This document shows, in pieces, positions 14,115 to 59,089 of a stretch of DNA of 64,000 nucleotides (positions are counted from its first letter, which is position 1; each line of letters starts with the position of its first letter). The notes under the pieces are model-generated. The model did not search any database and was not told the DNA's origin. It saw only the letters and a list, made by a program, of their open reading frames with translations. The DNA is taken from the NCBI GenBank assembly GCA_019454045.1, contig SKCR01031825.1, positions 25,749 to 89,748 on the forward strand, written 5' to 3'. The translations under genes were made by a program, and so were the position numbers. The DNA is from Zanthoxylum bungeanum. Its lineage: Eukaryota; Streptophyta; Magnoliopsida; Sapindales; Rutaceae.

Positions 14115-14742
14115 TTAGATGATGTAGTAGCCGCTATCACAAATCTATCACATAGACAGCGAAAGAATGATTAGCGGATTATAGTTTCAAACAATTTCAA
14201 AAAATCAAATAGATTATAGCTTTCTAATATAATAGAAGTTCTCCCACGATTTAATGTAAAATTATAATCCCCAAACAAAATATAAAAATTTAATAATTAA
14301 ACTCCATAATAGGATGTGGACCCTGTGAATATGTTTCGGCTCACAGCTTTGGCACGTTCTCGCCTATATATATTCACAGGTAGATAACCCATTGTTAATC
14401 ACACTCAATGTGACTCCTTATTTTAATCCTGAATTGTGTTTCATTCTTACAGCTTTGGCATGATAAGAATAATGCATATTCAAAGCTATATTTGCCAATA
14501 ATAAATTCAAGATACTAATGTAGCCCTGACAACTTTGGCACGGTCATTGTTTTCATTTTCACTTGAATTTATCTCATATCAAATATGTTTTATCGACGTA
14601 AATAAAATCATATCAATTATATTCTCACAGCTTTGGCACGGCAATGATATAGTCATAAAAATTCATTTATAATGTGACTTAGAAACAAGTGTTCCCATAC
14701 ACGAGTTATTATTAGCTTTATTAATTATGGATTTTTTACCTC
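14115..14742 (-). mobile_element. Non-coding leader of the copia remnant with spaced motif copies
   Basis: AT-rich, no frame. The word ACAGCTTTGGCACG and close variants occur near 14346, 14451, 14528 and 14627, about 80-105 bases apart. Its place upstream of the gag remnant suggests a 5' leader or LTR part of the same element. Confidence 0.4.
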
Positions 14743-14748
14743 AATGGG
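14743..14748. repeat. Target site duplication AATGGG (left)
   Basis: The same six bases lie at 26853-26858 on the other side of the Athila-like element. Confidence 0.6.
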
Positions 14749-15661
14749 TGACCGGCGTAATCACACACGTATAACGCAAGCGCACGTATCGTTCAAGTAG
14801 TATAAAAACTATTGATCACACGAGGACTTAATACCTAAGCTATTAATTTATGAAGCCAAATTTTTACAAGTATCTAATGGATTAGTTGTTTGTTTGGATG
14901 GTGACTTTAAATTTAAAACAAGTAAAAATATCACAAAAGTAGATTAAAGAAAATTCAATATTATTAAACTATCCAGGGTTGTGAATCTTTCCAATATCTT
15001 TTAAGGATGAAATGGTTATCTTACGTTTGTGTAATATATTGGTTTATTAACTTGGCACACGAAATTATGTAAAAGCCTCTTCCAATGGTCAGATACAAAT
15101 ACCCAGTGTAACCCAATTAATCATATTCCTATGTCAACCAAGTTACCTGAATTCATTAAGATTAAGTTCCACATATGGCTACCCCCGCCCGACATGTATA
15201 TTCTTATCCTGTAAGGAAATCTATTAAAGGGTTATCTATCTTTAAGGAAGATCGTGGGCTATTGAGTCTAGGGCCTTAAACCTAAAATCCATTTTCCAAG
15301 TTCATTTTAAGTTTACCAGATCAATCTTATTAATGACCCGTTAACAAGAAGCATTAAGACTAAGGCTCAATAAATAAACCATTATATTACCCCAAACTGT
15401 AAAATAACGCCTTATTAACCGGTGATATTAGAAGTCATCACAACCCCAGATAACGAGTTTAGTTACCACACATATCTAAGGCTAGTAAAAACTTAAATAA
15501 AGTAAATGACATAAAGTAAATGTTGGAAAGTAAATGCTGGAAAATAAAAAGAGAAAAGTACAATAAAAGAAAATGTTGGGGTTAGAGGATCCACTTTTAA
15601 TATTTCAAAATTAGAAATCTCCATTATTGTCAATGTTTACCGATTAATTAATTATATTTAA

Positions 15662-15840
15662 CCAGACCATAAAGGCGGTAATTCCATTTGTCTCAATTAA
15701 ATCCAACCGACCATATAGGCGGTAACAAGGTTATTACCTAAACTGACCATATAGGCGGAAACTACGTCTGAAATGTAAAACCGACCATATAGGAGGTAAA
15801 TAAGGTTGTCACCTAAACCGGCCATATAGGCGGAAACTGA
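15662..15840. repeat. Five-copy GACCATATAGGCGG motif in the 3' LTR
   Basis: Copies lie roughly 35-45 bases apart with alternating tails (GGTAA and GGAAAC). The same array occurs at about 25917-26095 in the other LTR. Confidence 0.85.
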
Positions 15841-16085
15841 TTAATCCAAATTTTAATTAAAATAAGGGAGATTAATCTAATTTATGATATTAAAAGTCTC
15901 ACATTTTCACCCCAGCAGAATGAGATTACCTGCTCATGCTGGAAATGAAAACACACAAAATTTTATTAATTAAATAAAAAGAAAATACAAGAAAACTTTA
16001 ATAAATATACAAGATACTTTCCTTTAGGTTTTCATGGAGAAATTCCTCCAAAGAAAGCATGAAAAATTTACAAAGTTTAGCTTGG

Positions 16086-16093
16086 TATTTATA
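16086..16093 (-). promoter_or_regulatory. TATA box in 3' LTR
   Basis: TATAAATA on the minus strand in the LTR, with a match in the other LTR at 26337-26344. The position fits a U3/R promoter; no transcription data are available. Confidence 0.5.
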
Positions 16094-16605
16094 GGCAAAT
16101 CTAAAGACTTCAACCAATTTCTCCTCCAAACATGGCACCAAATATGGCACCAAATCCTCCACAAAACATGCAAGCAATTCCGACTAATTATGAACTTCCA
16201 GATGTTTTATCATTTCAGTCATGGAAACGTCAGAATTCGAAATTATTATAAACTTCAATGTTGTCGATCTTTGAGTCTTATTTAATTTGGAACTTGAATC
16301 ACCTCAATCCGATATTGGAGTAAGAAGTTATGGCCAAAATATGAAAATTACGCAAATCTGGAATTTATGAAATTGTACTTCGTTAGAACGCCATTTCAAG
16401 TTTTCAATCTCCAAAATCAAAATTTCAAGTCCAGTTTTTGCCCTTATTTGTTCCACATTTTGTCCTAAATGATTCCATTGAGTCCCAATTTTATTTTATC
16501 TGCAAAATAAACAAAAACACATTAAAATATTCATCGGATCCCGAGAAACTAAACAAAATATTAGGTAAAAGGGGCGGTAAATATTGATATATTTTCCGCT
16601 CATCA

Positions 16606-16618
16606 CACCCCCACACCT
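16606..16618 (-). other. Polypurine tract of the Athila-like element
   Basis: The minus strand reads TTAGGTGTGGGGGTG directly before the LTR start TGATGAGCGG. Just upstream is a TTTTGCTCGAGGACTAGCAAAA word typical of gypsy elements. Confidence 0.8.
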
Positions 16619-17100
16619 AACATTTTGCTAGTCCTCGAGCAAAACAGCAAAATAAAATACAATAAACAATTAAAATTAAACTAAGCCACTTTCGTAGGGA
16701 TCACGGTTGCATTTAGCGTATGCAACAAGCCTTTAAACCCCTAGTTGTCCCCAGTGGACGAGTTGTTGTCTCGTGAGGGCTTACAGTGACGATACCCACA
16801 AACGTCAATCTAATGCACACAAAAGCAAAAATACAAGAGAAAAGAGAATAAACAAGTTAGTGACTAAATAACTGAAACTTCCTATCCAAGTTAGTAGTTG
16901 TTTTCTTTCTTTCTAAATTACCAAATAAGTAAATTCTCCGATTATTTTTACCATTCTTCAAATACACAACCAACAAGGTATTAATCAAATTATTGTGCCC
17001 ACAATATTCATAAGTGTAGTTGAAAAGAGAGTAATATTTTTGTCCTAAAGTTATATCAAAATTCACACCTTTTTTAGCAATAGATTTTTTTTTTATTTAT
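16619..17100 (-). other. 3' non-coding region of the Athila-like element
   Basis: No frame is seen. The part at 16680-16830 is clearly related, in inverted orientation, to 63380-63535 in the second Athila-like element, which shows the two share a 3' non-coding region. Confidence 0.6.
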
Positions 17101-17104
17101 ATAC

Positions 17105-17495
17105 AATATCTTTCTTCCATGTAGCGAGCTTTGGGTCAGTGACTTCCAAGCTAGTTGGCATTAGGGCACTAGGTGTTAAGATACCCTTACAGACTTAATT
17201 ACTCGGATTTCAGATATTTTTTTTTATATAAAATAAAGAAAGCAACATCTTCAATCCATGTAACGAGCTTTGGGCCAACGACTCCCAAACTAGTTGGCTT
17301 TAAGGCACTAGGTGTTAAAACACCCATACAGACTTAATCACTCGGATTTCAGATGTTTCTTTTTATTTTTATAACATCTTTGATCCATGTAACGAGATTT
17401 GGGTCAGTGACTCCCAAACCAGTTGGCTTTAAGGCACTAAGTGTTAAGACACCCCTACAGACTTAATGATTCGGATCTCAGACGTTTTTTTTATA
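17105..17495 (-). repeat. Three tandem copies of a ~130-bp unit
   Basis: Units start near 17117, 17256 and 17385 (spacing 139 and 129 bases). Each carries CCATGTAACGAGCTTTGGGTCAGTGACTCC-like sequence, a GGCACTAGGTGTTAAGACACCC stretch and CAGACTTAAT-ACTCGGATTTCAGA, followed by a T-rich spacer. They lie in the untranslated 3' part of the element. Function unknown. Confidence 0.9.
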
Positions 17496-18017: not shown

Positions 18018-18672
18018 TTAAAGGTTAAGATCCAGATTTATCTGACGCTTCTTACAACGATCATTATCAGACGAGTTAATCTTGGAAAGGATAGGGTCAA
18101 TTTGTGGTTCAAAGGCTAAAAATTGGTCAATTAAATCATGGGCAGTTCTGGCAGTGAAGATGAGATCTTTTACATGTTTTGATACGAACCCATTTCTTTG
18201 GGCATCATCAAGAAACACACAAAAAAAGTCATAAAATCCATCAGTGTTAAACAGTCCAGTCGGTTTCTGGTGTATGTTCAGGTTTGCCCAAAGTTAACAC
18301 TGTAAAAATTTCCTCCATCGTACCCAAGCCACCTGGCAAAGTAATAAAAGCATCAGCACGATTAATCATTTCTACCAGTCGTTCAGACATACCTGACACA
18401 ATCAGTTCTTCTCCGTTTGATGGTCCTATAAGATTCGCATCTACTAAGGGTTTTGGGATGATTCCCAAAACTTGACTGTCTCCTTCTTGTACAGCCCTTG
18501 AAATGATCCTCATTAGTCCAAGATTGACACCGCCATATACTAAGTGCATATTCCTTTCAGCAATGACTCTACCCAATTCCTGTGCTGCCGCTATGAATTC
18601 TGGTTTAGAACCAGCACTAGTACCGCAAAACACACAAATGTTTACAACTCGTCTTCTTGAAGTTGCTTCCAT
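18018..18672 (-). pseudogene. Intronless LOG-family gene captured by the retrotransposon, one frameshift
   Basis: LOG enzymes release active cytokinin bases from nucleoside 5'-monophosphates. From ATG 18672 the frame begins with a CVFCGTSAGSKPEF N-terminus (residues 13-26), a VYGG-V-N-LGLM loop (45-54) and an intact PGGLGTMEE motif (113-121). One extra base in the A run at 18290-18292 (ACTTTGGG on the minus strand) breaks the frame near codon 128; the next frame continues the fold through an HQKPTGLFN segment to a stop at 18018. Total about 217 codons, usual for the family. Plant LOG genes have several introns and none is present here, pointing to an RNA-derived copy. The GGGxxGLMG loop is altered (V49, R55), and the C-terminus ends LDLNL. 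It lies in element orientation between pol and the 3' LTR. Family identity is strong; activity is unknown and the written frame is broken. Confidence 0.88.
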
Positions 18673-19030
18673 TTTTTTTATGTATTTTTTCTCAAGTCTG
18701 GATGCCTTCAAGAGTGCAATGATGAGTTGAATTTATAGAACCTGAAAAAGGGTGAGTAATAATAGCACTAGTACCTGCCAAATGGCAATTATTAGCTAAA
18801 CAGTAAAATATATCGTGAAAGTCAAAAAGTCTAGATCATGTCGGAGAAAATAAAAGAAAATAAGAAAACAAATCACAATTATTATATATATACAAAGAGA
18901 AAATAATATTTACAAGAAGTAATGGCTTGAATGACGTCTATGCATCAGAGATAAGCTTCCCATCCAATTTTCTAATAAATTGGCAAACATGGTAATTTAA
19001 AGTCAGATTCCCGAGACTGAATTGTTGTCT
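18673..19030 (-). other. Spacer between the two extra ORFs
   Basis: AT-rich, no supported frame. The LOG frame stays open upstream to 18711 with a TTG codon, but the first ATG is at 18672. Confidence 0.5.
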
Positions 19031-19486
19031 TTATTTTCGGAACTGTGTATATAACATGTGAATTGCGTGATGCACATATCCACTGGAATGCATCTCAAGA
19101 GTCTTAGATATGTCATCCAAAGACTCCTTACTCAAGCCATCCCTAATGAATTTAATTTTATCTTCACGGTTATCAGATATCATTCCTAAAGAACGACAAT
19201 GAGTATTACATGTCATGCGTGCACATTTATAGCAAACACCTAGTCTTTTAGCTCTTCTTTTCTTAGCATATGTGCTTCTTCCTAAACCAGTCAGATATGG
19301 AATAAAAGAGTCAGAGGACTCACCTGCCAATCAGACCCGTGCTTCAATAAACCAACGAATGTCATTAGGAATACCTTTGATCATCAGAAGTCTCATTCGT
19401 TCTAAGCGAGCTTTGTAGACTTTCATCAGAGAGTTTTGAGGGAGAGAATGAAATTACTTGTGAATATTTGCAAGAACGTCTTCCAT
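19031..19486 (-). pseudogene. Extra ORF resembling plant-virus cysteine-rich nucleic-acid-binding proteins, two stops
   Basis: Starting at ATG 19486 the frame runs 151 codons to the stop at 19031, interrupted by TAA at 19454-19456 and TGA at 19331-19333. The central part (codons 70-98) has a lysine/arginine-rich stretch directly followed by a C-x2-C-x4-C-x3-C cluster (C85, C88, C93, C97), then an acidic/basic helix-like tail. This layout matches the small NABP of Betaflexiviridae (Pfam Viral_NABP, vitivirus and related genera), which bind nucleic acid and can suppress RNA silencing. That link comes from remembered family layout and was not searched. It sits between the pol stop and the LOG-like ORF, in element orientation. 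It is not an envelope-like protein: no membrane segment is seen. Alternative: an unrelated zinc-binding host domain. Confidence 0.6.
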
Positions 19487-20131: not shown

Positions 20132-20575
20132 CTATAGTGCGTCATCTAGTTTTTCAGACCAGTCCTTCCTTGTTGAACAAATGGTTCTCTCCAAGATTCT
20201 TTTGATCTCTCTATTTGAAACTTCAACTTGTCCATTTGACTGCGGATGGTAGGCTGTGGCAACTTTATGAGTAACTCCGTATTTGGATAGGAGTGCATCG
20301 AAGTATCTGTTGCAGAAATATATGCCACCATCACTGATAATCACCCGAGGTGTTCCGAAGCGAGTGAAAATATTCTTTTTAAGGAATTTAATCACCACTT
20401 TTGAATCATTTGACGGCAGTGCAATTGCTTCAACCCATTTGGAGACGTAGTCTACTGCAACTAGTATGTACATGTTTCCGAATGATGTAACAAAGGGTCC
20501 CATAAAATCAATACCCCATACATCAAATATCTCCACTTCCAGAATATTTTGCAGAGGTCCTTCATTTGTCCTCGA
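20132..20575 (-). pseudogene. Integrase catalytic core (DDE), Athila-like
   Basis: The open frame at 20536-20132 has all three catalytic acids: D10 in GIDFMGP, D69 in IISDGG, and E105 in [12 protein letters not shown], with 35 residues between the last two, as expected for retroviral-type integrases. The core itself looks intact; the domains on both sides are broken. It would join element cDNA to host DNA. Confidence 0.9.
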
Positions 20576-21028
20576 AATATTTCCCGTTCTCTGGCACTTG
20601 TCACATTGAAGAGTAAATAAGTAATCATTTTTAAACAGAGTGGGCTAGAACAAACCTGATTGTAGGAATTTGGCTGCAGTTTTATTTCCGATGAAGTGTC
20701 CATCGTATGGTGATGAATGACAATGCTGCAAGACATTATTGACCTCTTTCTGTGGAACACAACGTCTTAGTAATTGATCAGCACAACATTTGAACAGGTA
20801 CGGCTCATCCCAGACATAATGCTTGACTTCTTTGAAGAACTTCTTTAGTTGTTGATGAGTCCATTCCAACATCCATTTTCCCAATACTATGTAGTTGACA
20901 TAGTCAACATACCAAGGGGCATCGTGCTGTTTCATGGTAAATAATTGTTCATCTGGAAAAGTTTCTTTGATTGTCAGTTCATTGCCAGCTGTTTCTCCAT
21001 TCTCGAGCCTTGATAAGTGATCTGCCAC
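20576..21028 (-). pseudogene. RNase H end and integrase zinc-binding N-domain
   Basis: Starts with the ADHLSRLENGE segment that closes RNase H and runs to the HCHSSPYDGHF block. The frame stops after QSGLF (20645); the C-x2-C half of the HHCC domain continues in another frame ([14 protein letters not shown] sequence near 20585-20610). Confidence 0.75.
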
Positions 21029-21412: not shown

Positions 21413-22309
21413 CTATTTCAAGATTTCAAAATTTTCGTGGCATTCTTTGGTGAAGTTGAAAGGCATATCTTTCTCCAGAAGATTGCATAGAGGTTTAGCA
21501 ATCTTTGAGAAGTCTTTGATAAATCTCCTGTAAAATCCTGCATGTCCGAGAAAACTCCGAATCCTTTTGACAGATGTAGGTGGAGGTAATTTTTCAATTG
21601 TTTCGATCTTTGCTTTGTCTACCTCAATTCCTTTTTTTGAGATCCGATGTCCCAGAATAATGCCTTCCTGCACCATGAAGTGGCATTTCTCCCAGTTGAG
21701 TACCAGGTTGGCATCTTCGTACCTTTGTAACACTTTTTCCAAATTTTGCAAGCAGTGGTCAAAAGAGTCTCCAAACACAGAGAAATCATCCATGAAAACC
21801 TCCATATTTTGTTCCAGCATGTCTGAGAAGATGGCCATCATGTAACGTTGAAATGTGGCAGGAGCATTACATAGTCCAAATGGCATCCTACGGAAAGCAA
21901 AAGTACCATATGGACATGTAAAAGTGATTTTCTCCCGATCTTCTGGGGCGATGGCTATCTGATTGTACCCTAAGTATCCGTCCAGAAAATAATAGAATTC
22001 ATGTCCCGCCAATCTGTCTAGCATTTGGTCAATGAATGGTTACGGGAAATCATCCATGCATACTATCCATCCAGTCACCGTTCTTGTTAGAATCAACTCG
22101 TTCTTTTCATTAGTGACTGCATTAATTCCTCCTTTCTTCAGCACACACTGCATATGACTCTCCCAAGTGCTATCAGAGATGAGGTAAATGATGCTGGCAT
22201 CCAACCATTTGATGATTTCTTTCTTCACGACCTCCTTCATGATTGGATTTAGTCTCCGTTGATGCTCCACTGTGGGTTTGTACTCGTCAGTCATCAGAAT
22301 CTTGTGCAT
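21413..22309 (-). pseudogene. Reverse transcriptase, Athila-like
   Basis: Two open stretches in one frame separated by a stop near 22037. The first (22309-22040) carries the HQRRLNP and VVKKEIIKWLDA segments. The second (22024-21413) carries FLDGYLGYNQI, FRRMPFGLCNAPATFQR and the polymerase motif VFMDD (FMDD at residues 77-80 of this stretch, about 21785-21796), then the ILGHRISKKGIEVD and FLGHAGFYRRFI thumb region. The active-site acids are present, but the frame is interrupted. Confidence 0.92.
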
Positions 22310-23343
22310 GAAAAATGATGGACTAATGCCTCAAATGTCTGCTATAGTCCAGCCAATGGCTTTCTTGTGTTCTCGTAACACTCTCAACAACTTTTCATCA
22401 TGCTCCAATGTTAGCGACGAAGAAATAATCACAGGTAATTTAGAAGAATTTCCTAAGAATACATACCTGAGATGGCTCGGAAGTAGCTTTAGCTCAGCTA
22501 CGGTAGTTCTTCAATCAAAGGTTTGATTCGCTCCTTTTTCGGTAGTTCTAGACTTTCCAATTGTGGTGTTGATTTGAAGCGAAATGGCTTGTCAAGATAA
22601 TTGATACATTCCAGAATTTCATCATCTAACTCGTTGTCAGTCATGTTGGTGATGCAAGCTTCACGTTTATCCGTGAAAAGTGGCATTGCATCAGTATCCT
22701 GGATGATAATATCAACAACATTAATTCTGAAACATTCCTCCTCATTTTCATCACTCGGGAATTTTGTGGCTTTGAAAACATTGAAGGTAACTTCTTGGTT
22801 CTGCACTTTCATGGTTAGTTCTCCTTTTTGTACATCAATAATAGCTCGAGATGTAGCCAAGAATGGTCTCCCCAGGATGATAGGTACATCTTTATCTTCC
22901 TCCATGTCAAGGATAATGAAATCTGTTGGGAGAATGAGTTTGTCGACTTTGACCAGCACATCTTCAACTACACCTCTCGGAAATATGAGCGTTCTATCAG
23001 CAAGTTGCAGAGATACTGAGGTGGGCATTTCTTCTCCAATCTGCAGTTTCCTGTAAATCGAAAAAGGCATCAAATTAACACATGCACCTAAATCACACAA
23101 AGCTTTACCGATGTAATGTTCTCCAATGGTGCATGGGATAGTGAAACTGCCAGGATCTTTCAACTTTGGGGGAAGTTTCCTCTGAATGATGGAGCTGTAT
23201 TCTTCTGTCAATGCTATTGTCTCGTAATCTCTCAATCTTCGCTTTCGTGAAAGAATGTCTTTCATGAATTTGACATAGCTGGGCATTTCTTCCAACGTTT
23301 CTGCAAATGGAATATTGATATGCAGCTTTTTGAATACCTCCAA
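22310..23343 (-). pseudogene. Aspartic protease and linker, Athila-like
   Basis: An uninterrupted 281-codon frame (23343-22498) carries the active-site block ALCDLGAC with the catalytic Asp at residue 84 and the ILGRPFLAT flap region. Athila-type elements use D-L-G in place of the D-S-G or D-T-G of most proteases. The linker at 22497-22310 holds a stop before the polymerase. Confidence 0.88.
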
Positions 23344-24867
23344 GAATCGAGCAAACTGCCTGTCCAGTTTATTTTTCTGGAGACGCTATGGAAAAGGTGG
23401 AGGTGGAGTTAATCTTTCTTTATCTTTTTCCTTTGCTTCTTTTTCCTCCATCTATGGAACTGCATCTTTTGGAACTTGTTCAATGGGTGCCTTGATTCCA
23501 ACATCTTTGTTGATTTCAGTACCGCTTTTTAGGTAATGGCTTGACATTGCTCTTTCCCTCTGTTCCTTGTATTTGGTTTTGTGTTGTTGGGAAGATTTCC
23601 TTGCGGTCTGTAACTCTGAGCATTGGCCAGTTGTCCAATTTGATTTTCCAGTGCCTTTATAGACGTATATTGGCTTTGAAACATAGCATCGTATGTTTCT
23701 TGTTGCTTTTTGAACATCTCTGCAATCCATTCTTTTATATCTGGTTCTTTTTCATACTCCTGGCCTTTATTTTGTTGTTGGAATCCAGGTGGTGGATAGT
23801 TCTTTTGCCCTGAATTGTTGCTCCATGCGAAATTGAGATGATTCCTCCACCCTGGGTTGTAGGTGTTGGAATATGGATTGTTCCCCTGTCGTTGAAATTT
23901 TTGACATAATTCATCATTTCTTCATGTTGGTTTGCTTCTGATTCTGGTGCTCCTCCATATGGTGAACTTGTGGATCCAACATTAACCTTCATGTTAAGAG
24001 TTTCCAGATTTTTGCAAATTAGATCCAGCTTGGCATTCATTGCAGTGTTGGCTCCAACTTCATAAATTCTAGAAATTCGTTGGATCATGCTCATTTCTGT
24101 TGGCCATAATGAATTGTTGTTGGCAATTTCTTCAATTAGGTCTCATGCTTGATCTTCTCATTTTGCCATTAAAGTACCTCCAGCAGCAGCGTCAATTATG
24201 GTTCTCATTATTCCAGAAAGTCCATTGTAGAAGGTTTGGACTTGTATCCATTTTGCAATCTCATGGTGAGGACATTTCCGGAGTAAAGCTTTGTACATTT
24301 CCCAAGCTTCGCAGAGAGATTCTGAGTCATGTTGCACAAATGATGTGATGTCATTCCTCAGCTTTGCAGTTCTGGCTGGTGGAAAATACTTTGCAAGGAA
24401 TTTGGTGGCTAGAGTGTTCCAAGTTGTGATGGAACCTACTGGTAGTGAATGTAGCCAAGCTTTAGCTCTGTCTTTCAAGGAATATGGAAAAACTCGCAGT
24501 CTCATTACTTCTTCAGCTGCTCGGTTGTAGTTGAAAGTGCCACAAACTTCCAAGAAGTTGCTGAAATAGGCATTAAGATCTTCAGTTGCATTCCCCCAAA
24601 CTGAATTGACTGTTGTATCATCTGAATGTATGTTTTGATGTCACATGCATTTACTGGTAATGGAGGAAGTACAATATAGGAAATGAAGTCGTCAACCACC
24701 GGAATGGTTCTGTCTCGAATGGGAATTGGTGGTGCAACTTCCAAAGGTTCAAGTTCCATGTTGATCAGTGCTTCTTGGCCTTCTCTCATTTCCCTTCTCA
24801 ACTGTCTGATGGTTCTTTCAATCTCTGGGTCAAGCGGTCGGATTTCAAAGCTTCTGGTTCGTCTCAT
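23344..24867 (-). pseudogene. gag, Athila-like, several frameshifts
   Basis: The first likely ATG is at 24867 (RRTRSFEIRPLDPEIE start). The capsid region is in the next frame (24553-24158), with LKDRAKAWLHSLPVGSITTW, FPPARTAKLRNDI and TFYNGLSG segments typical of Athila gag. A TGA at 24158-24160 and further frame changes near 24590, 23900 and 23730 break it. The C-terminal part (SYRPQGNLPNNTKPN and GKEQCQAIT-type blocks) is in a third frame. No zinc knuckle was seen. Confidence 0.85.
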
Positions 24868-24976
24868 GTAGTGTCTGAGAACCTGAAACACAAGAAAACA
24901 AAAATAATAAGTTAAAAAAAAATTAGACACAAGTAAATGTATCTAACCCCAAAACTAATAGTAAAAGATAAATAAG
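24868..24976 (-). other. Short leader between primer site and gag
   Basis: The minus strand contains TTTGTTTTCTTGTGTTTCAG, which has the form of a 3' splice site, 16-20 bases before the gag ATG. It may be chance. Confidence 0.3.
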
Positions 24977-24994
24977 TCCCCGGCAACGGCGCCA
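24977..24994 (-). other. Primer binding site for tRNA-Asp
   Basis: Minus strand TGGCGCCGTTGCCGGGGA, an 18-base match to the 3' end of plant tRNA-Asp as I know it, six bases from the 5' LTR. Confidence 0.9.
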
Positions 24995-25000
24995 AAAACT

Positions 25001-26852
25001 TGACCGGCGTAATAACACACGTATAATACAAGCGCATGTATCGTTCAAGTAGTATAAAAAGTATCGATCCAACGAGGACTTAATACCTAAGCTATTAATT
25101 TATTATGCCAAATTTTTATAAATATCTAATGGATTGGTTGTTTGTTTGGATGGTGACTTCAAATTTAAAACAAGTAAAAACAGCGCGAAAGTAGATTAAA
25201 GAAAATTCAATATTATTAAACTATCCAGGGTTGTGAATCTTTCCAATATGTTTTAAAGATGAAGTGGTTATCTTACGTTTGTGTAATATATTGGTTTATT
25301 AACCTGGCACACGAAATTATGTAAAAGCCTCTTCCGATGGTCAGATACAAATACCCAGTGTAACCCAATTAATCATATTCCTATGTCAACCAAGTTACCT
25401 GAATTCATTAAGATTAAGTTCCAATTATGGCTACCCCCGCCTTACAGGTATATTCCTATCCTGTAAGGAAATCTATTAAAGGGTTATCTATCATTAAGGA
25501 AGATCGTGGGCTATTGAGTCTAGGGCCTTAAACCTAAAATCCCTTTTCCAAGTTCATTTTAAGTTTACCAGATCAATCTTATTAATGGCCAGTTAACAAG
25601 AAGCATTAAGATTAAGGCTCAATAAATAAACTTTTATATTACCCCAAACTGTAAAATAACCCCTTATTAACATGTGATATTGGAATTCATCACAACCCTA
25701 GATAACGGGTTTAGTTACCACACATATCTAAGGCTAGTAAAAACTTAAATAAAGTAAATGACATAAAGTAAATGTTGGAAAGTAAATGCTGGAAAATAAA
25801 AAGAGAAAAGTACAATAAAAGAAACTGTTGGGGTTAGAGGATCCACTTTTAATATTTCAAAATTAGAAATCTCCATTATTGTCAATGTTTACCGATTAAT
25901 TAATTATATTTAACCAGACCATAAAGGCGGTAATTCCATTTGTCTCAATTAAATCCAACCGACCATATAGGCGGTAACAAGGTTATTACCTAAACCGACC
26001 ATATAGGCGGAAACTACGTCTGAAATGTAAAACCGACCATATAGGAGGTAAATAAGGTTGTCACCTAAACCGGCCATATAGGCGGAAACTAATTAATCCA
26101 AATTTTAATTAAAATAAGGAAGATTAATCTAATTTATGATATTAAAAGTCTCACATTTTCACCCCAACAGAATGAGATTACCTGCTCATGCTGTAAATGA
26201 AAACACACAAAATTTTATTAATTAAATAAAAAGAAAATACAAGAAAACTTTAATAAATATACAAGATACTTTCCTTTAGGTTTTCCTGGAGAAATTCCTC
26301 CAAAGAAAGCATGAAAAATTACAAAGTTTAGCTTGGTATTTATAGGCAAATCTAAAGGCTTCCACCAATTTCTCCATCAATTTCTCCTCCAAACATGGCA
26401 TCAAACATGGCACCAAACATGGCACCAAATCCTCCACCAAACATGCAAGCAATTCCGACTAATTATGAACTTCCGGAAGTTTTTATCAATTTTGATCATG
26501 AAAACTTCAGAATTCAAAATTATTATGAACTTCAAAATTGTCGATCTTTGAGTCTTCTTTAATCTGGAACTTGAATCACCTCAATCCGACATCGGAGTAA
26601 AAAGTTATGGCAAAAATACGAAAATTACGCAAATTTGGAATTTCCAAAATTGTACTTCGTTAGAACGTCATTTCAAGTTTCCAATCTCCAAAATCAAAAT
26701 GTCAAGTCCAGTGTTTGCCCTTATTTGTTCCATATTTCATCCTAAATGATTCCATTGACTCCAATTATATTTTATCTGCAAAATAAACAAAAACACATCA
26801 AAACGTTCATCGGACCCGAGAAACTAAACAAAATATTATGTAAAATGGGCGG
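25001..26852 (-). mobile_element. 5' LTR of Athila-like element, outer end shortened
   Basis: Close copy of 14749-16605. It lacks the outermost 28 bases present in the 3' LTR and stops at GGGCGG, followed directly by AATGGG. It has the TATAAATA box at 26337-26344 and the GACCATATAGGCGG array at about 25917-26095. It contains a small extra duplication around 26365-26430 (ATGGCACCAAAC words). Confidence 0.88.
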
Positions 26853-26858
26853 AATGGG
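26853..26858. repeat. Target site duplication AATGGG (right)
   Basis: Matches 14743-14748. Six bases, one more than the five usual for gypsy elements. Confidence 0.55.
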
Positions 26859-26860
26859 TA

Positions 26861-28957
26861 TGTGTAGACACTAAATTTTTATACATACCCCGATGATGAG
26901 TCTCTTATGGGGACATCTACGGAAAGTTGGGGAAATTGTAAAGATGAACGCCAAGAAGGAAAGTAACTTCAAGAACACATAAAATATAGCCAAAATTTGG
27001 CAGGACATCACCTATGTTCGGCCTACTTTCTCTCTAAAATAGAAAATCTGACCGGATGTACCTTGAAAATCCTAATTCCGGTCGGACACAATACAACTAT
27101 CATTGAATGAGCAGATTTTCAGTTACTGAAGTTAATGGATCTGATAATGTCTTGCAGGACATAAAATTCAAATTTAATAGTCAATCAGACATGTATCGAG
27201 CTGTCAGTACACGTGCAAAATTTAATAGTCAATCAGACATGTATCGAGCTGCCAGATGTATGTCCCAAAATATATGTCTGGCAGGACATCGGTCGTGTCG
27301 TGTCTAACGTTTTGATTGGCAATAACTTGAGATAGACTAAAGGAATGGAGGGGATATTGATCCCCTTTCATTTCTCAGGCATTTCCCCTACACTTTAAAA
27401 AGGACCATTATCCTTCACCAAGGGAGGCTGGAGAGTTTTTAGAGATCAACCCTAAAAAAAATCCTTGAAAACAAAGAAAGAAAAAGAGAGAGAGAGAGAG
27501 ATAAGGCATACTTGTGAGAAAAGCCAGTAAGGTTCTTGGGGTTCTTTCCTTCCAGCAAGCAACCAAGCAACAACCTGACGATCAGAGGCGTCTTCAAAGA
27601 TAAACTATATAGAAAATGTACGACCTTATGACAGCCTTTGTCATTTATAAGCATATTTGAGATTCTATTTTGTTTGACACAATATCTCTGGCCGGACATA
27701 TACCACGTTCGGCTGGACATGTGCACACATCTGGCCACCTATAAACATTTTATGTCAAGTTTATTGCTTTCTGTAATTATCGATGCCATTTATTCTCTGC
27801 ATGTTTATGTTATTCAATCTTATACAATCATACTATGCGGATCCAGTTGATTTATCTCGTTCATACTAACATGTATGTTACCGTATTCTCTTATATTTTT
27901 ATTATTTTATGCGCGATTTCATATGATTGATCTGTAAGTCATATCCGATCAGACCTATTACAGGTCCGACTGGACATGATTTATTTATGGCCGTGTGATC
28001 TCGTTGTATATAAGATGGAAATCCGGACGTAAGTTCCATGGCTAATTCCGAATGGATGGTAATATGGTTCACACTCGGGATACAACTCCATCAACCACTA
28101 TGAGGTAACCATTTAATTAAGAATGTATCCAAAATGCATGTTTATTATATCTTTATTTGCATATGAATGCTTCTATATTTATAGACTACACAACATGTTC
28201 GGCCTAACTTTATTGAAGTCCGGTCGGACATGCACAACTATATCCGACTGACCTTGGGTCATGTCTAGCCAGACTTCTCTGAGGTCAGGCCCTCCGAATA
28301 CATACTTTAGTCTATTTAATTGTAATTGTAGCAGTTTATTTATTGTTACTGGAATTATTGTTATCTTATTATTGGAATCACTGTCACTTACTGTTTGTTA
28401 TACTATTTTACCTACTATTATTGTGATTCTGCATTTTTAGTTACACAGTACGTATGGTCAAACTCCCAGCAAGTTCGACTGGACATTGAACATTATATCT
28501 GGCCTATAATAGCCATGTCCAGCCAACCTCTCCTAGGCCAAACCCATGTGATACTTGCCTAGATTTATTTCATCACTGTTTTTAGCAATGTCGTAATAAT
28601 TTATGGATATTTACTTTACTTCTTATCTTTATAATTCATGTTTGCGCCTTGTATGCCTTTAAACTACGTTGGTGCGTTCTTGCATTATAAGATATGAGAA
28701 TACTTATTTTAAGCGTAATTATTATACTGGCATTAGTAAGGGACCATTACAAACTAAAAATGGTTTAAGGTCAGACCTTACGAGGGGTGTAGTTTGGCCT
28801 TAAATTATTCCCAACGATTCATACTGGATGACAACTCCCTTATTCTCCGGTCAGTTCCCCCGTAGGACTATCTGTACTCTCTACTGGCTGTGAGCCTAAC
28901 AATATAGTGGTCACCGACGTCATAATATATAGCGATAAACCCCGCTTCAGTCCGACA
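26861..28957 (+). mobile_element. Ogre/Tat-like LTR, copy A
   Basis: Begins near TGTGTAGACACTAAA and ends ...CAGTCCGACA, two bases before a TGGCGACT primer-site word. It is rich in variants of GGTCGGACATG spread over 2 kb. It shares the block TTATAAGATATG... TACTGGCATTAGTAAGGGACC with copies B and C. The start coordinate is approximate. Confidence 0.6.
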
Positions 28958-34822: not shown

Positions 34823-35305
34823 TTATGGGTTCACTTGCTTCATTTCGGGTGGGCTGAATTTTCGGGGCAATTCAACTGCTATAATTGACTCCACGAATGG
34901 GGTATCAGAAATTTCTCCAGCTCTGCTCTTCCTGATTAGAAGCCTTACTCCTGGTAGTCTGGACATAATCGCTTCCTTGAATTCAATCATCTCTCTTCTC
35001 ATGGAACTAGCAATTTGATGAGTTGGATCGAGAGAAGAGTTCGGGTCACGTGAAGTTGGTCGGTGATTGTTGTTTGGCCCATCCGACATGGGCGGGACTG
35101 TCGGATTGCTTCGGTCGTCTGAATCGCTGGTTTGACCTTGAGTGTTATGCTGGGGATTGGATGACAACTGCTCCATCTTTTTCTGTAGGTTTTCGTTGGA
35201 ATTTTGCATTGTCAGATTCTCCTCTTCAAGGGCTTGCAGACGTTCTTGGAGCATGGCACGTTCTGCAATCATGGGTTCCGGGGCTTGCTCATCGCTCGAG
35301 GCCAT
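34823..35305 (-). CDS. gag-like N-terminal protein of the LARD-like element
   Basis: An open frame of 160 codons starts about 70 bases downstream of the 5' LTR (minus strand). Residues 15-50 form a likely coiled coil (ERLQALEEENLTMQNSNENL region), followed by a polar linker rich in N, D, S and P (50-95) and a segment with SSMRREMIEFKEAIMSRLPG (about 103-122) ending in a FVESI-AVELP-KF block. That order is usual for the start of gag in Tat-type gypsy elements of plants. The frame ends without a capsid core or zinc knuckle, so it is a gag fragment. Whether it is translated is unknown. Confidence 0.65.
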   Translation of the reverse strand: MASSDEQAPEPMIAERAMLQERLQALEEENLTMQNSNENLQKKMEQLSSNPQHNTQGQTSDSDDRSNPTVPPMSDGPNNNHRPTSRDPNSSLDPTHQIASSMRREMIEFKEAIMSRLPGVRLLIRKSRAGEISDTPFVESIIAVELPRKFSPPEMKQVNP

Positions 35306-35353
35306 TTCCAGCTGCTTGTAGAGGTGTTTAATTTTTACAAAATCCGCTCGGTA

Positions 35354-35371
35354 GCCCCACAGTGGGCGCCA
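35354..35371 (-). other. Primer binding site, tRNA-Lys type
   Basis: Minus strand TGGCGCCCACTGTGGGGC three bases from the 5' LTR; complementary, with one mismatch, to the 3' end of plant tRNA-Lys as I recall it. Confidence 0.7.
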
Positions 35372-35374
35372 AAT

Positions 35375-36008
35375 TGTGGATGCTGATTTCGGTCGAGGTC
35401 CACAACCGAGAATGAATTGCGGGGCACAAGCGAACCTGTAAAATAAGAATAGAGCGAACGAGGAGGTTACTGCCCACCAGTGTGGTGGAAGCCGTGGGCA
35501 CTCCGACGCTCAAGTCAGCAAAATATGAATAAGTCGAAGGTGATAGGATCAAGGTCTTAGGATACCTCAACCTTTGTTTGATTGCCGTGAGGGCAGGGTA
35601 TTATGTTTTGTCTGATGATAGATGTAGTGCAAAAAATGCCTCTTCCTCTATACCTTTGCTTCTCTCTTTTATAGGCTCCCCGATGTGGGGTCTCTCTTCT
35701 GCTCGTTAGAGTCGTTGTAACTGGTGGCTTAATTAGATGGTTTATCTCTAGTAACTAATGTCTTTATGATTGTTTGTCTATCTTCTGAAACTGTCGACTT
35801 TATGTTGATGTTTATGAGTTCTGGTTCTCTCTTGATCTGGTAACTGGTGTCCGTTGGTTCTCTCTTGATGACATTGGGCTTCGGCTCATGAGGCCTTTTT
35901 GTCTGATATTTTTGCCTATGGGCTGGACTCACTAATGGGCTTCAGGTTTGGTGGTTGGCCCTGAGGTAAATGTCGATTTTATCCTTAGGCCCAAATTTGG
36001 CCCGTACA
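35375..36008 (-). mobile_element. 5' LTR of the LARD-like element
   Basis: 634 bases, ends TGTGGATGCTG and GGCCCGTACA on the plus strand, followed by the ATGTT duplication. Confidence 0.92.
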
Positions 36009-57000: not shown

Positions 57001-59089
57001 CCAAATCCTACATTCTTCATTTAAGGGGAATCCCTCCCTTGAGCAATTTTGGACATAGCCAAGCTTTCAAGATGAAGCAAATTCAAAAATGGGTGATTAT
57101 CTCATTTATTTCAATCCGGTTCTTTAGGTTTGAATGTTGTCCCCTGGATCATGTCAGCTGGTTTCATGACTTCCTTGACGTCTATGATCTAGACGGTTTT
57201 GACTACATGCTCTAGACGATTTTGACTACATGCTCTATTTCAGATCCTCGAACTCTGTGGAGTTGTATTTTTCTCGTGTTGTGTTGTGTTTTTTTTTTTT
57301 TTTTTTTTTTTTTTTTTCCGTGTGTGGGGGAGAGAGAGAGAGAGAGAGAGAAAATTGAGATTTAGTTTTGTTTTGAGCTAGTGAACATTTGGAGACCATA
57401 TACTTTTAAAATAATTTAACCATGTTGTTTATGTCTGATTAATATGCGTATATTGAAATTTTTTTCATATATTATCAATGTTTTATGTGGCACTTAAATT
57501 TAAGAAAAATTATGGGTTTGTTTAAATTCATATCTTTTAAGCATCTTTTGAATTCAATGTCTTATTACTCCTTTTTGTCTGACTGTTTGTCTCAGGACAT
57601 AAATGAAGAATGGATTTCAGACAAGACTCGTTTTTGTTATGATGGTTTGAAGAGGCAGAGGCTAAATGATCCAATGATTCGTGGTATTGATGGGCGCTTT
57701 AAGGCTGTGAACTGGAGGGATGCCTTAGCTGTGGTTGCTGAGGTTGTGCATCAGGCTAATCCAGAGGAAATTGTTGGGATTGCTGGTCGGCTGTCTGATG
57801 CAGAATCCATGATGGCACTAAAAGATTTCTTAAACAGAATGGGTTCAAATAATATATGGTGTGAAGGAACTGGTGCGCAACCTAACGCTGACCTACGATC
57901 AGGATATATTATGAATACTACAATCAGTGGTCTTGAGAAGGCAGATTGTTTCCTTTTGGTTGGTACCCAGGTAGTGCTCAGTCACTTTTTTCTGTAGCAT
58001 GTAGTAAAAGTTGCGTCCTTTATGCTGGAATTTTACATTTTTTCTTGACCCTTGCTTGTACTATAACTTTTTTGTATGATGCATATTTCATGAGAATGGA
58101 ATATGGATCTTTTTAAGTGCTACTGTACTTTAAATTGTGTTCCAACTTTAGTATTACATTGATCTTATATTTCCATTTTTGTTTCCAGCCACGAGTAGAA
58201 GCTGCTATGGTAAATGCCAGAATCCGCAAGACCGTCCGAGCAAACATTGCTAAGGTGGGTTATATTGGCCCTGCCTCAGATTTGAACTATGATCACCAGC
58301 ATCTTGGCACTGGCCCGCAAACACTTCTTGAAATTGCTGAGGGTCGTCACCCTTTTTGCTCTGCCATCTCAAACGCTAAAAATCCAGTCATTATTGTTGG
58401 TGCTGGACTCTTTGAGAGGAAAGACAAAGATGTGATTTTCGCTACTGTCGAAGCCATTGCGAAAAATGGGAATGTTATCAGACCTGACTGGAACGGGCTC
58501 AATGTTTTGCTTCTCAATGCTGCTCAAGCTGCGGCCCTGGACCTCGGACTTCTGCCTGAATCTAGCAACAGCATTGAGTCTGCGAAGTTTGTCCATCTCA
58601 TGGGTGCTGATGATGTGAACTTGGACAAGCTTCCAGATGATGCATTCGTTGTTTATCAAGGCCACCATGGTGACCGTGGTTGTTTATCGTGCGAATGTAA
58701 TTCTCCCAGCATCAGCATACAGTGAGAAGGAAGGGACATACGAAAATACAGAAGGTTGCACTCAACAAACATTGCCTGCAGTTCCAACTGTTGGTGATGC
58801 CAGGGATGATTGGAAGATAATTCGGGCACTTTCAGAGGTAGCAGGGATGCGTTTACCATATGATACACTTGGAGGCATTCGATCGCGAATCAGGACAGTG
58901 GCACCGAATCTCTTGCGCGGGGATGAGAGAGAACCTGCTACCTTCGGGCCTTCTTTGAAGCCTGAGATCAAAAGTGAAATGGATTCAACTCCTTTCAGTA
59001 GTGCAGTTGAGAATTTCTATATGACTGATTCTATCACCCGGGCATCAAAGATCATGGCTCAATGCAGTGCAATGCTACTGAAGAAGTGA
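51077..59089 (+). CDS. NDUFS1: NADH dehydrogenase [ubiquinone] iron-sulfur protein 1, 75-kDa subunit of complex I
   Basis: Coding exons: 51077-51482, 51561-51807, 53872-54166, 57596-57970, 58189-59089; every intron is GT-AG. The product sits in the matrix arm of mitochondrial complex I and passes electrons through three clusters. Visible ligands: C101, C112, C115, C129 (2Fe-2S, N1b); H161, C165, C168, C174 (4Fe-4S, N5); C213, C216, C219, C263 (4Fe-4S, N4). An R/S-rich N-terminus of about 60 residues looks like a mitochondrial presequence. The rest is the molybdopterin-oxidoreductase-like domain. Total 740 residues, normal for plants, if the extra T at 58681 is ignored. As written, the frame shifts after residue 605 and ends at 58725; the true frame resumes and ends TGA at 59087-59089. 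A sequencing or assembly slip is the likeliest reason, because all else is intact. Confidence 0.95.
51483..51560 (+). other. NDUFS1 intron 1 (78 bp)
   Basis: GTGGGC donor and TTATTATAG acceptor; splits the codon of G136. Confidence 0.93.
51808..53871 (+). other. NDUFS1 intron 2 (2.06 kb)
   Basis: GTTAGA donor and TCCAACAG acceptor; splits the N4 cluster motif between C216-T-R and C219. It holds a 761-bp MITE (51877-52637). A second patch at about 53255-53465, with GCCAAGGCG and CGCGTTTAACAACA tips, may be another small element. Confidence 0.93.
51877..52637. mobile_element. Mutator-like MITE in NDUFS1 intron 2
   Basis: Inverted ends GGGATAAAGCCC and GGGCTTTCTCCC, with similarity continuing for about 40 bases (CCCTAATTTTTTTCATAATGT on the left, its inverse on the right). 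Flanks TTGTAATTA (51868-51876) and TTGTAAATA (52638-52646) agree at 8 of 9 bases, the duplication length of Mutator-type elements. No transposase. Confidence 0.75.
54565..56045. repeat. GC-rich patches with repeated GCGCCTAGG palindromes
   Basis: Patches at 54570-54645, 55490-55585 and 56010-56045 carry many copies of CTAGGCGC and its inverse in otherwise AT-rich intron DNA. They may be ends of one or two small transposons; boundaries not resolved. Confidence 0.4.
56041..56625. mobile_element. MITE-like element in intron 3
   Basis: The left arm has a 78-bp tandem duplication of GTGATCCCTTTACTACAACTATCGTGAAATAA-type sequence (56053 and 56130); the inverse of this arm appears at 56577-56622 (TTATTTCACCATAGTTGGAGTAGTAAA). 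No coding capacity. Exact ends not fixed. Confidence 0.55.
56847..57156. repeat. 310-bp near-perfect inverted repeat
   Basis: Two 154-base arms with only about five mismatches and no net gap are separated by two bases (57001-57002). Left tip TGACATGATCC, right tip GGATCATGTCA. In RNA it would form a long hairpin within the NDUFS1 intron. Confidence 0.95.
57289..57352. repeat. Poly-T tract and GA microsatellite
   Basis: About 30 T followed after a short GT-rich spacer by about eleven GA units. Confidence 0.95.
57971..58188 (+). other. NDUFS1 intron 4 (218 bp)
   Basis: GTAGTG donor after GTQ and GTTTCCAG acceptor before PRVEAA; no repeats. Confidence 0.93.

What the first reader, a model, noticed from the sequence alone, without database searches (positions are those of the whole stretch)
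19031..19486. Virus-like cysteine-rich nucleic-acid-binding ORF in a gypsy element
The ORF after pol has a basic stretch joined to a C-x2-C-x4-C-x3-C cluster in a ~150-codon frame, the layout of betaflexivirus NABPs, some of which suppress RNA silencing. Athila elements are known for envelope-like genes here, not for this. If real, a retrotransposon gained a viral anti-silencing or RNA-binding protein. The frame has two stops in this copy.
Basis: partly seen in the sequence, partly recalled or inferred. Interest (0 to 1): 0.88.

Follow-up and report, generated by a model that had tools for sequence, protein, structure and literature searches.

The report
Virus-like nucleic-acid-binding gene in retrotransposon
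A very abundant plant jumping gene carries, behind its usual genes, a small protein gene whose core looks like a nucleic-acid-binding protein of plant RNA viruses, next to a copy of a plant hormone-activating enzyme gene; relatives of the small gene are kept intact by selection, so the jumping gene probably uses it.

Summary
On the minus strand the window has a ~12-kb Athila-like Ty3/gypsy element. After pol lies an ORF with a basic run and an exact C-x2-C-x4-C-x3-C cluster. Its longest open piece (99 aa) passes Pfam's curated cut-offs for Carla_C4 (E 6.3e-8) and Viral_NABP (E 1.8e-6); 0 of 9 shuffles match either. The full frame is about 182 codons and this copy has three premature stops (codons 11, 52, 152), not two. 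Downstream is an intronless LOG-type (cytokinin-activating enzyme) ORF. In the same 3.96-Gb genome, 20 of 20 fetched copies chosen by integrase carry the NABP-like ORF (one as a fragment) and 18 of 20 the LOG ORF. Between element subfamilies the NABP-like frame has dN/dS 0.21-0.41; shifted frames do not behave so. Against: cysteine spacing differs from viral NABPs, no viral protein was among the listed hits, and near the window's own copy constraint is not visible. LOG domains in gypsy elements were published; ten full-text searches showed no report of the NABP-like ORF. Function is inferred: a nucleic-acid-binding accessory protein, possibly anti-silencing, or a stand-in for a Gag zinc knuckle that I could not find.

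The parts
18938..19486 (-). NABP-like ORF, full frame of about 182 codons plus stop; premature stops at codons 11, 52 and 152 in this copy
19034..19330 (-). longest open piece (99 aa), matches Carla_C4 and Viral_NABP above Pfam cut-offs
19244..19264 (-). basic run KKRRAKR (codons 75-81)
   Evidence: coordinates derived from codon numbers
19196..19234 (-). C-x2-C-x4-C-x3-C cluster (codons 85, 88, 93, 97)
   Evidence: coordinates derived from codon numbers
18019..18672 (-). LOG-type (cytokinin riboside 5'-monophosphate phosphoribohydrolase-like) ORF, intronless, broken by a frame shift at about residue 134 of the piece searched; low end approximate
   Evidence: Pfam Lysine_decarbox E 4.5e-20 and LDcluster4, TIGR00730 above cut-off, PDB At2g37210 E 3.8e-32, frames
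20132..20644 (-). integrase core (rve)
   Evidence: E 2.2e-17
21413..22039 (-). reverse transcriptase (RVT_1)
   Evidence: E 1.7e-23
22498..23385 (-). protease region (RVP_2, weak: E 0.007, below cut-off)
24158..24640 (-). Gag (Retrotrans_gag)
   Evidence: E 6.9e-23
24977..24994 (-). putative primer binding site, six bases inside the 5' LTR; the 18-nt sequence that I recall as the tRNA-Asp complement
   Evidence: position; a tRNA-Asp PBS is described for the related element Diaspora in PMC1142308, without its letters in the passage
25001..26852 (-). 5' LTR; its outermost ~30 nt differ from the 3' LTR
14749..16607 (-). 3' LTR, preceded by a purine-rich tract (GGTGTGGGGG) at about 16608-16617
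   Evidence: exact edges inferred by eye
17088..17492 (-). three tandem ~137-nt copies between the LOG ORF and the 3' LTR

Best explanation
[quoted passage not shown] Intact versions encode a protein of about 182 aa: an N-terminal part, a middle (about residues 35-120) with a basic run and a Cys4 cluster that matches the flexivirus NABP profiles (shown), and a C-terminal part of its own. It travels with a LOG-type ORF as a two-gene cargo (shown). Selection on the protein sequence between subfamilies (shown) means that it has served the element. Inferred mechanism: it binds the element's RNA or derived small RNAs through the basic/Cys4 part. Within that I rank the modes: shielding the element from RNA silencing, as reported for carlavirus CRPs (about 0.4); supplying the nucleocapsid-like binding that these Gags seem to lack (about 0.3); nuclear transcription regulation, as reported for chrysanthemum virus B p12 (about 0.2). 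The LOG ORF would add active cytokinin in expressing cells.
For: Pfam: Carla_C4 32.9 bits (cut-off 20.9) and Viral_NABP 28.5 (cut-off 23) on the open piece; in a full-length relative the Viral_NABP match runs over 86 residues (35-120), beyond the Cys cluster. Shuffles: 0 of 9 match either family. Fixed in the family: 20 of 20 integrase-selected loci carry it (1 as a 200-nt fragment), LOG in 18 of 20; 18 of 20 NABP-selected loci carry LOG (in one of the other two the contig ends first). LOG follows NABP in 4 of 4 loci of other subfamilies for which I fetched the stretch behind it (of 8 such loci). Of the 150 best-scored protein matches, 133 and 140 have no stop in the matched stretch (my count of the listings; the best-scored are a biased sample). 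dN/dS between lineages (pairs with dS above 0.25) 0.21-0.41, integrase 0.12-0.29. Frame control: mean pN/pS 0.35 in frame against 0.88 and 1.24. Hits whose source names an organism are Xanthoceras, Acer, Rhamnella, Parasponia and Striga. No C-x2-C-x3-6-[HC]-x3-6-C in the gag-protease interval of the window and 13 of 13 loci examined (no positive control was run).
Against: Among the copies nearest the window no clear selection shows: common variants fall on codon positions 7/4/7 (21 rows) or 10/4/13 (39 rows), few in number, and rare ones 31/31/27; with a laxer cut-off 32/25/32; pairwise dN/dS among five of them is 0.37-0.83. Stops at codons 52 and 11 occur in 12 and 10 of 38 copies, so copies can spread without an intact frame of their own. 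The cysteine spacing is not that of carlaviruses. The structure model is poor (mean pLDDT 55.5) and the viral fold search gave 0 matches at E <= 0.001. No expression, binding or silencing data.
Confidence: 0.62

Rival explanations
1. It is a nucleocapsid stand-in: a derived retroviral-type zinc knuckle moved out of Gag, matching viral NABP profiles only because both are basic and cysteine-rich.
For: The spacing C-x2-C-x4-C-x3-C is close to the Gag knuckle CX2CX4HX4C reported for the related element Diaspora (PMC1142308), and no knuckle was found in the gag-protease interval of the window and 13 of 13 loci.
Against: No CCHC family is among the five Pfam families listed for the open piece, while two viral families pass cut-offs (HMMER's filters drop most matches above about 0.1). 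The Viral_NABP match in a full-length relative extends over 86 residues.
Confidence: 0.2
2. The transfer went the other way: flexiviruses took their NABP from such a plant element or from a common plant source.
For: The family is widespread and very abundant in plants: named relatives in five plant genera and tens of thousands of first-look candidates in this genome (35,739; 41,812; candidates, not confirmed copies).
Against: Passages of PMC12172455 put CRPs in both Alpha- and Betaflexiviridae, which suggests an old viral history; too few alignable positions to decide, and no viral sequences were in hand.
Confidence: 0.2
3. The cargo is passive: NABP and LOG are captured pieces carried along, and the open frames merely reflect youth.
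For: No clear selection signal in NABP among the copies nearest the window; many copies with stops; about 113 of the 150 best-scored LOG matches run on into the window's shifted frame (my count; biased towards the query), so that break is shared.
Against: Low dN/dS between subfamilies for NABP (0.21-0.41) and LOG (0.11-0.23 in the six pairs with dS above 0.7); the frame control; the order NABP-LOG kept in 4 of 4 loci of other subfamilies.
Confidence: 0.06
4. It is the degenerate envelope-like gene typical of Athila elements.
For: Same place and orientation as Athila env-like ORFs (PMC7264820).
Against: No env-like or Athila ORF family among the matches of the pieces scanned; clear viral NABP profile match; a much smaller protein than env-like ORFs (recalled).
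Confidence: 0.03

Closest known systems
Carlavirus cysteine-rich / nucleic-acid-binding proteins (Pfam Carla_C4 PF01623, Viral_NABP PF05515)
   Same: Basic run directly before a Cys4 cluster; both Pfam cut-offs passed; match extends on both sides of the cluster in a full-length relative.
   Different: C-x2-C-x4-C-x3-C instead of CX2CX12CX4C or C-X2-C-X9-C-X4-C; about 182 aa with a C-terminal part outside the viral matches; encoded by an LTR retrotransposon in a nuclear genome; suppressor activity unknown.
Athila / Calypso / Diaspora lineage of Ty3/gypsy elements
   Same: gag-PR-RT-INT order, a PBS that I recall as tRNA-Asp type, long pol-to-LTR interval with a sense ORF.
   Different: The sense ORF is not env-like; no Gag zinc knuckle was found, while Diaspora has one and lacks a third gene (PMC1142308).
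LOG/YgdH-carrying gypsy elements of Citrus and Populus (PMC9289625, citing Steinbauerova 2011)
   Same: A LOG-type domain carried by a gypsy element; here an intronless LOG-type ORF after NABP.
   Different: The main text searched and the section read name no NABP-type ORF; the full domain chart is in a supplement that I did not see, and whether those elements carry one was not tested.
Accessory ORFs with silencing- or RNA-related roles in plant transposons (VANDAL ORFs that protect from silencing; AlkB in Phalaenopsis gypsy elements)
   Same: An extra transposon protein with a presumed or shown nucleic-acid role.
   Different: Other proteins; here a virus-type domain and no functional data.

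Membership tests
Carla_C4 / Viral_NABP (sequence family) | score above Pfam's curated cut-off | tested here: met
   32.9 against 20.9 and 28.5 against 23 bits
Carlavirus CRP/NABP | zinc-finger spacing CX2CX12CX4C (or C-X2-C-X9-C-X4-C) | tested here: not met
   C-x2-C-x4-C-x3-C; viral motifs from PMC9559581, PMC8742542 and PMC3689765 passages
Carlavirus CRP/NABP | basic (nuclear-localisation-type) run next to the zinc finger | tested here: met
   KKRRAKR, with the first Cys as the fourth codon after it; localisation itself not tested
Carlavirus CRP/NABP | 3'-proximal gene of an RNA virus, after the coat protein | tested here: not met
   lies between integrase and LTR of a retrotransposon
Carlavirus CRP/NABP | nucleic acid binding and silencing suppression | not testable with these tools
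   needs protein or plants
Athila lineage | tRNA-Asp-type PBS next to the 5' LTR | tested here: inconclusive
   18-nt string at 24977-24994; that it is the tRNA-Asp complement is recalled and was not checked against a tRNA
Athila lineage | RT phylogeny | not tested
   no lineage reference set was in hand; the label rests on layout and PBS
Athila lineage | Athila ORF-1 / env-like protein after pol | tested here: inconclusive
   no such match in the pieces scanned; only 16% of Athila elements carry pfam03078 per PMC6317226
LOG (cytokinin riboside 5'-monophosphate phosphoribohydrolase) | TIGR00730 / Lysine_decarbox family | tested here: met
   115.5 against 96.35 bits; Pfam E 4.5e-20
LOG (cytokinin riboside 5'-monophosphate phosphoribohydrolase) | equivalog score NF058542 | tested here: inconclusive
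   88.6 against 300 bits, but only the first 147 aa of a broken frame were scanned
LOG (cytokinin riboside 5'-monophosphate phosphoribohydrolase) | PGGxGTxxE signature (recalled) | tested here: met
   PGGLGTMEE aligned to PGGYGTLEE of At2g37210
Retroviral CCHC zinc knuckle | C-x2-C-x4-H-x4-C | tested here: not met
   third ligand is Cys and the last gap is 3; no such family among the five listed

The most novel reading that the evidence does not exclude
An Athila-like lineage acquired a virus-type NABP and a plant LOG gene and keeps them as a two-gene module: the NABP counters RNA silencing or acts as a regulator of transcription, while LOG raises active cytokinin so that the cells in which the element is expressed stay meristematic and reach the germ line. 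This would be a retrotransposon that both evades silencing and alters host development to spread.
Probability: 0.18. Interest if true: 0.92.

Novelty: new variant of a known kind. Interest (0 to 1): 0.72.

Why it matters
Extra ORFs of plant LTR retrotransposons are common. In the review of which I read two of three parts, the sense ones after pol are described as envelope-like and the antisense ones as having no clear similarity to known proteins (PMC7264820). Here is a sense one with a profile link to a protein family of RNA viruses for which silencing suppression has been reported, under purifying selection between subfamilies and very abundant. It links RNA viruses and retrotransposons by gene exchange in one direction or the other, and makes testable whether plant retrotransposons carry their own silencing suppressors. 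Its pairing with a hormone-activating enzyme gene is unusual.

Tried and rejected
Plus-strand reading of the coordinates: five stops in frame 1. BFVD fold search on a low-confidence model: nothing usable (47 matches at E <= 10, 0 at E <= 0.001; a Cherry mottle leaf virus 15-kDa protein at rank 13, E 4.5, is not evidence). Viral comparators from IMG/VR: 37 stretches by peptide patterns, none confirmed; 24 loci by a motif pattern, none with a relative by profile at E <= 10. Shorter-profile protein search to reach viruses: 71 hits; the 18 that I read look element-type. NCBIfam: nothing for three NABP-like queries. PDB sequences: only two matches, E above 1. Family search PF01623 in the own genome did not complete, nor was the P0037 query. 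Codon-position test for NABP among near copies: no signal. Five relatives ending at the same residue: I put this down to the length filter of that search and dropped it. A tree of viral against element domains was not made for lack of viral sequences. Literature: ten full-text searches showed no report of a NABP-type ORF in a retrotransposon in listings, abstracts' starts and passages; only two papers hold any of four family identifiers, and their abstracts' starts are unrelated. Steinbauerova 2011 could not be read (a recalled DOI, not held).

Full report
What is there. The finding lies on the minus strand of an LTR retrotransposon. Its LTRs are at about 14749-16607 and 25001-26852, with 96 differences in 1826 aligned sites, K2P 0.055. 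Between them, in minus-strand order, are an 18-nt putative PBS at 24977-24994 (tRNA-Asp type by recall), gag, a weak protease match, reverse transcriptase and integrase, then the reported ORF, then a second ORF, then tandem ~137-nt repeats and the 3' LTR. Layout, a PBS of that type and a long pol-to-LTR interval fit the Athila/Calypso/Diaspora group as described in passages of PMC1142308; RT phylogeny was not tested.

The ORF. It begins with ATG and contains KKRRAKR and C-x2-C-x4-C-x3-C. Relatives continue about 30 codons further, and the window frame does too, to a stop at 18938-18940. This copy therefore has premature stops at codons 11, 52 and 152. I searched its open pieces apart. The 99-aa piece 19330->19034 scores above the curated cut-offs of Carla_C4 (E 6.3e-8) and Viral_NABP (E 1.8e-6); three further families are listed, all below cut-off (E 0.049, 0.2, 3.7); the 40-aa piece matches nothing. 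Of nine residue-shuffled versions none matches either viral family. Of 37 database relatives, 36 match Carla_C4 and 35 Viral_NABP at E <= 0.1.

Relatives in databases. A search with the 99-aa piece gave 61 proteins at E <= 1, an alignment search 640 at E <= 10, of which 120 are listed, and a shorter profile 71. Those whose source names an organism are plants: Xanthoceras sorbifolium, Acer yangbiense, Rhamnella rubrinervis, Parasponia andersonii (one record is already called 'Viral nucleic acid binding') and Striga hermonthica. No listed hit is named as a virus; 520 of the 640 were not listed, so I cannot say that none is.

The family in this genome. Searches report first-look candidates of 4,075 (NABP DNA), 7,990 (integrase DNA), 35,739 and 41,812 (NABP-type proteins); only the best 40 or 150 were scored, so these are not copy numbers. 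I fetched the stretch behind 20 of the 39 scored integrase matches other than the window (of the best 22 I left out one already held and one at a contig end): 20 of 20 carry NABP (one a 200-nt fragment, one in two pieces) and 18 carry LOG, three of them partly or in pieces. Eight of the 20 NABP-selected loci have no RT and no integrase match; in seven of these protease and NABP are 550-614 nt apart against 3,012 in the window, and the seven intervals are 84-99% alike in pairs, so a defective sister subfamily kept the cargo; the eighth (L022) has no protease or gag match either.

Selection. Between subfamilies the NABP frame evolves under constraint. Thirteen open frames were compared: five near the window's copy, picked for long open frames out of more, and the eight fetched from other subfamilies (themselves picked as having no stop). 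In one search twelve NABP rows gave dN/dS 0.21-0.41 in the pairs with dS above 0.25; integrase gave 0.12-0.29 in 11 pairs (8 of 11 loci gave a row; pairs with L078 and L082 were not printed, presumably because dS is saturated); LOG gave 0.11-0.68 in 21 pairs, lowest where dS is highest. A frame control on 25 pairs gave mean pN/pS 0.35 in frame and 0.88 and 1.24 in the shifted frames. Against this, among the copies nearest the window NABP shows no third-position excess (the common sites are few, 18 or 27), while gag, protease and RT do and LOG does more weakly (p 0.029, and 0.16 without methylation-prone sites); pairwise dN/dS among the five near copies is 0.37-0.83. In 38 of the 40 loci with enough cover, a stop at codon 52 occurs in 12 and at codon 11 in 10; 11 have no substitution-type stop up to codon 151, five of these also without indels. 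So copies decay, and some spread without an intact frame of their own, while the lineages stay constrained over the longer run.

Where the constraint lies. Among the 37 relatives the most alike stretch is residues 98-120, just after the Cys cluster (mean identity 0.78), then the basic/Cys part (0.69); the N-terminal part has 0.54 and the C-terminal part 0.58. Residues 98-120 lie inside the Viral_NABP match but outside the Carla_C4 match of the first relative; the part after 120 lies outside both.

The neighbour. The ORF at 18672->about 18019 matches Lysine_decarbox/LDcluster4, TIGR00730 above cut-off and Arabidopsis At2g37210 and At5g11950 in the PDB. It has no intron in two fetched loci with an open frame (217 and 218 aa in L084 and L085) and is broken by a frame shift here, a break that many of the best LOG matches share. 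In Acer a predicted protein, P0053, has NABP first and a LOG-type part after it (LDcluster4 24.5 bits, just below its cut-off of 26.3, 36% over 86 residues); this may be a gene-model fusion, but it points to the same order. LOG (YgdH) domains in gypsy elements of Citrus and Populus are published (PMC9289625, section 12, citing Steinbauerova 2011, which I could not read). LOG carriage is thus known; the NABP-type partner I did not find reported.

How it may work. Shown: a conserved, constrained ORF with a viral-NABP-type domain in a fixed place. Inferred: it binds nucleic acid through the basic/Cys4 part. Passages of PMC3689765, PMC12172455 and PMC9559581 report carlavirus CRPs as silencing suppressors and pathogenicity determinants, and p12 of chrysanthemum virus B as a transcription factor; this makes an anti-silencing or regulatory role the natural first guess. 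The rival that I take most seriously is a nucleocapsid role: no C-x2-C-x3-6-[HC]-x3-6-C occurs in the gag-protease interval of the window and 13 of 13 loci, and the strict CCHC pattern has one chance-like hit, with a stop inside, in 20 loci, while Diaspora's Gag has CX2CX4HX4C. The two are not exclusive.

Comparison and novelty. By Pfam's threshold it belongs to the sequence family; by cysteine spacing and genome context it is not a carlavirus CRP. Direction of transfer is open. I rate it a new variant of a known kind, an extra ORF of a plant LTR retrotransposon, with an unexpected protein. Of the papers I saw passages or named sections only: PMC7264820 parts 1 and 2 of 3; PMC9289625 sections 12 and 17 and passages; PMC11728184 discussion and passages; PMC1142308 section 10 and passages; passages of PMC3136472, PMC11963269, PMC6317226, PMC9559581, PMC3689765, PMC8742542, PMC12172455, PMC2410132 and PMC7145672.

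Noticed in passing
window 18019-18672 (-): Intronless LOG-type (cytokinin-activating enzyme-like) ORF next to the NABP-like ORF; about 217 aa and open in some copies, with low dN/dS between divergent copies.
   Followed up: yes
L009, L013, L014, L017, L018, L024, L028: Sister subfamily without RT and integrase matches but keeping a protease match, NABP and (except L017, where the contig ends) LOG; 550-614 nt between protease and NABP against 3,012 in the window.
   Followed up: partly
window 22400-25000 (-) and 13 loci: No zinc-knuckle pattern in the gag-protease interval in any frame of that strand, unlike Diaspora.
   Followed up: partly
window 17088-17492: Three tandem ~137-nt copies (77-82% alike to the first) between LOG and the 3' LTR.
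   Followed up: no
window 26800-26900 and 14700-14760: The outer ~30 nt of the 5' LTR differ from the 3' LTR start; ACCCAT occurs near both element flanks, perhaps a target-site duplication or a later change.
   Followed up: no
window 57443-58725 (+): Two open stretches that look, by eye and recall, like exons of a mitochondrial complex I 75-kDa subunit gene; not searched.
   Followed up: no
window 34823-35509 (-): 228-codon open frame that looks by eye like a retrotransposon gag start; not searched.
   Followed up: no
P0053 (Acer yangbiense): Predicted protein with NABP-type and LOG-type parts in one chain, pointing to the same gene order in another plant.
   Followed up: partly
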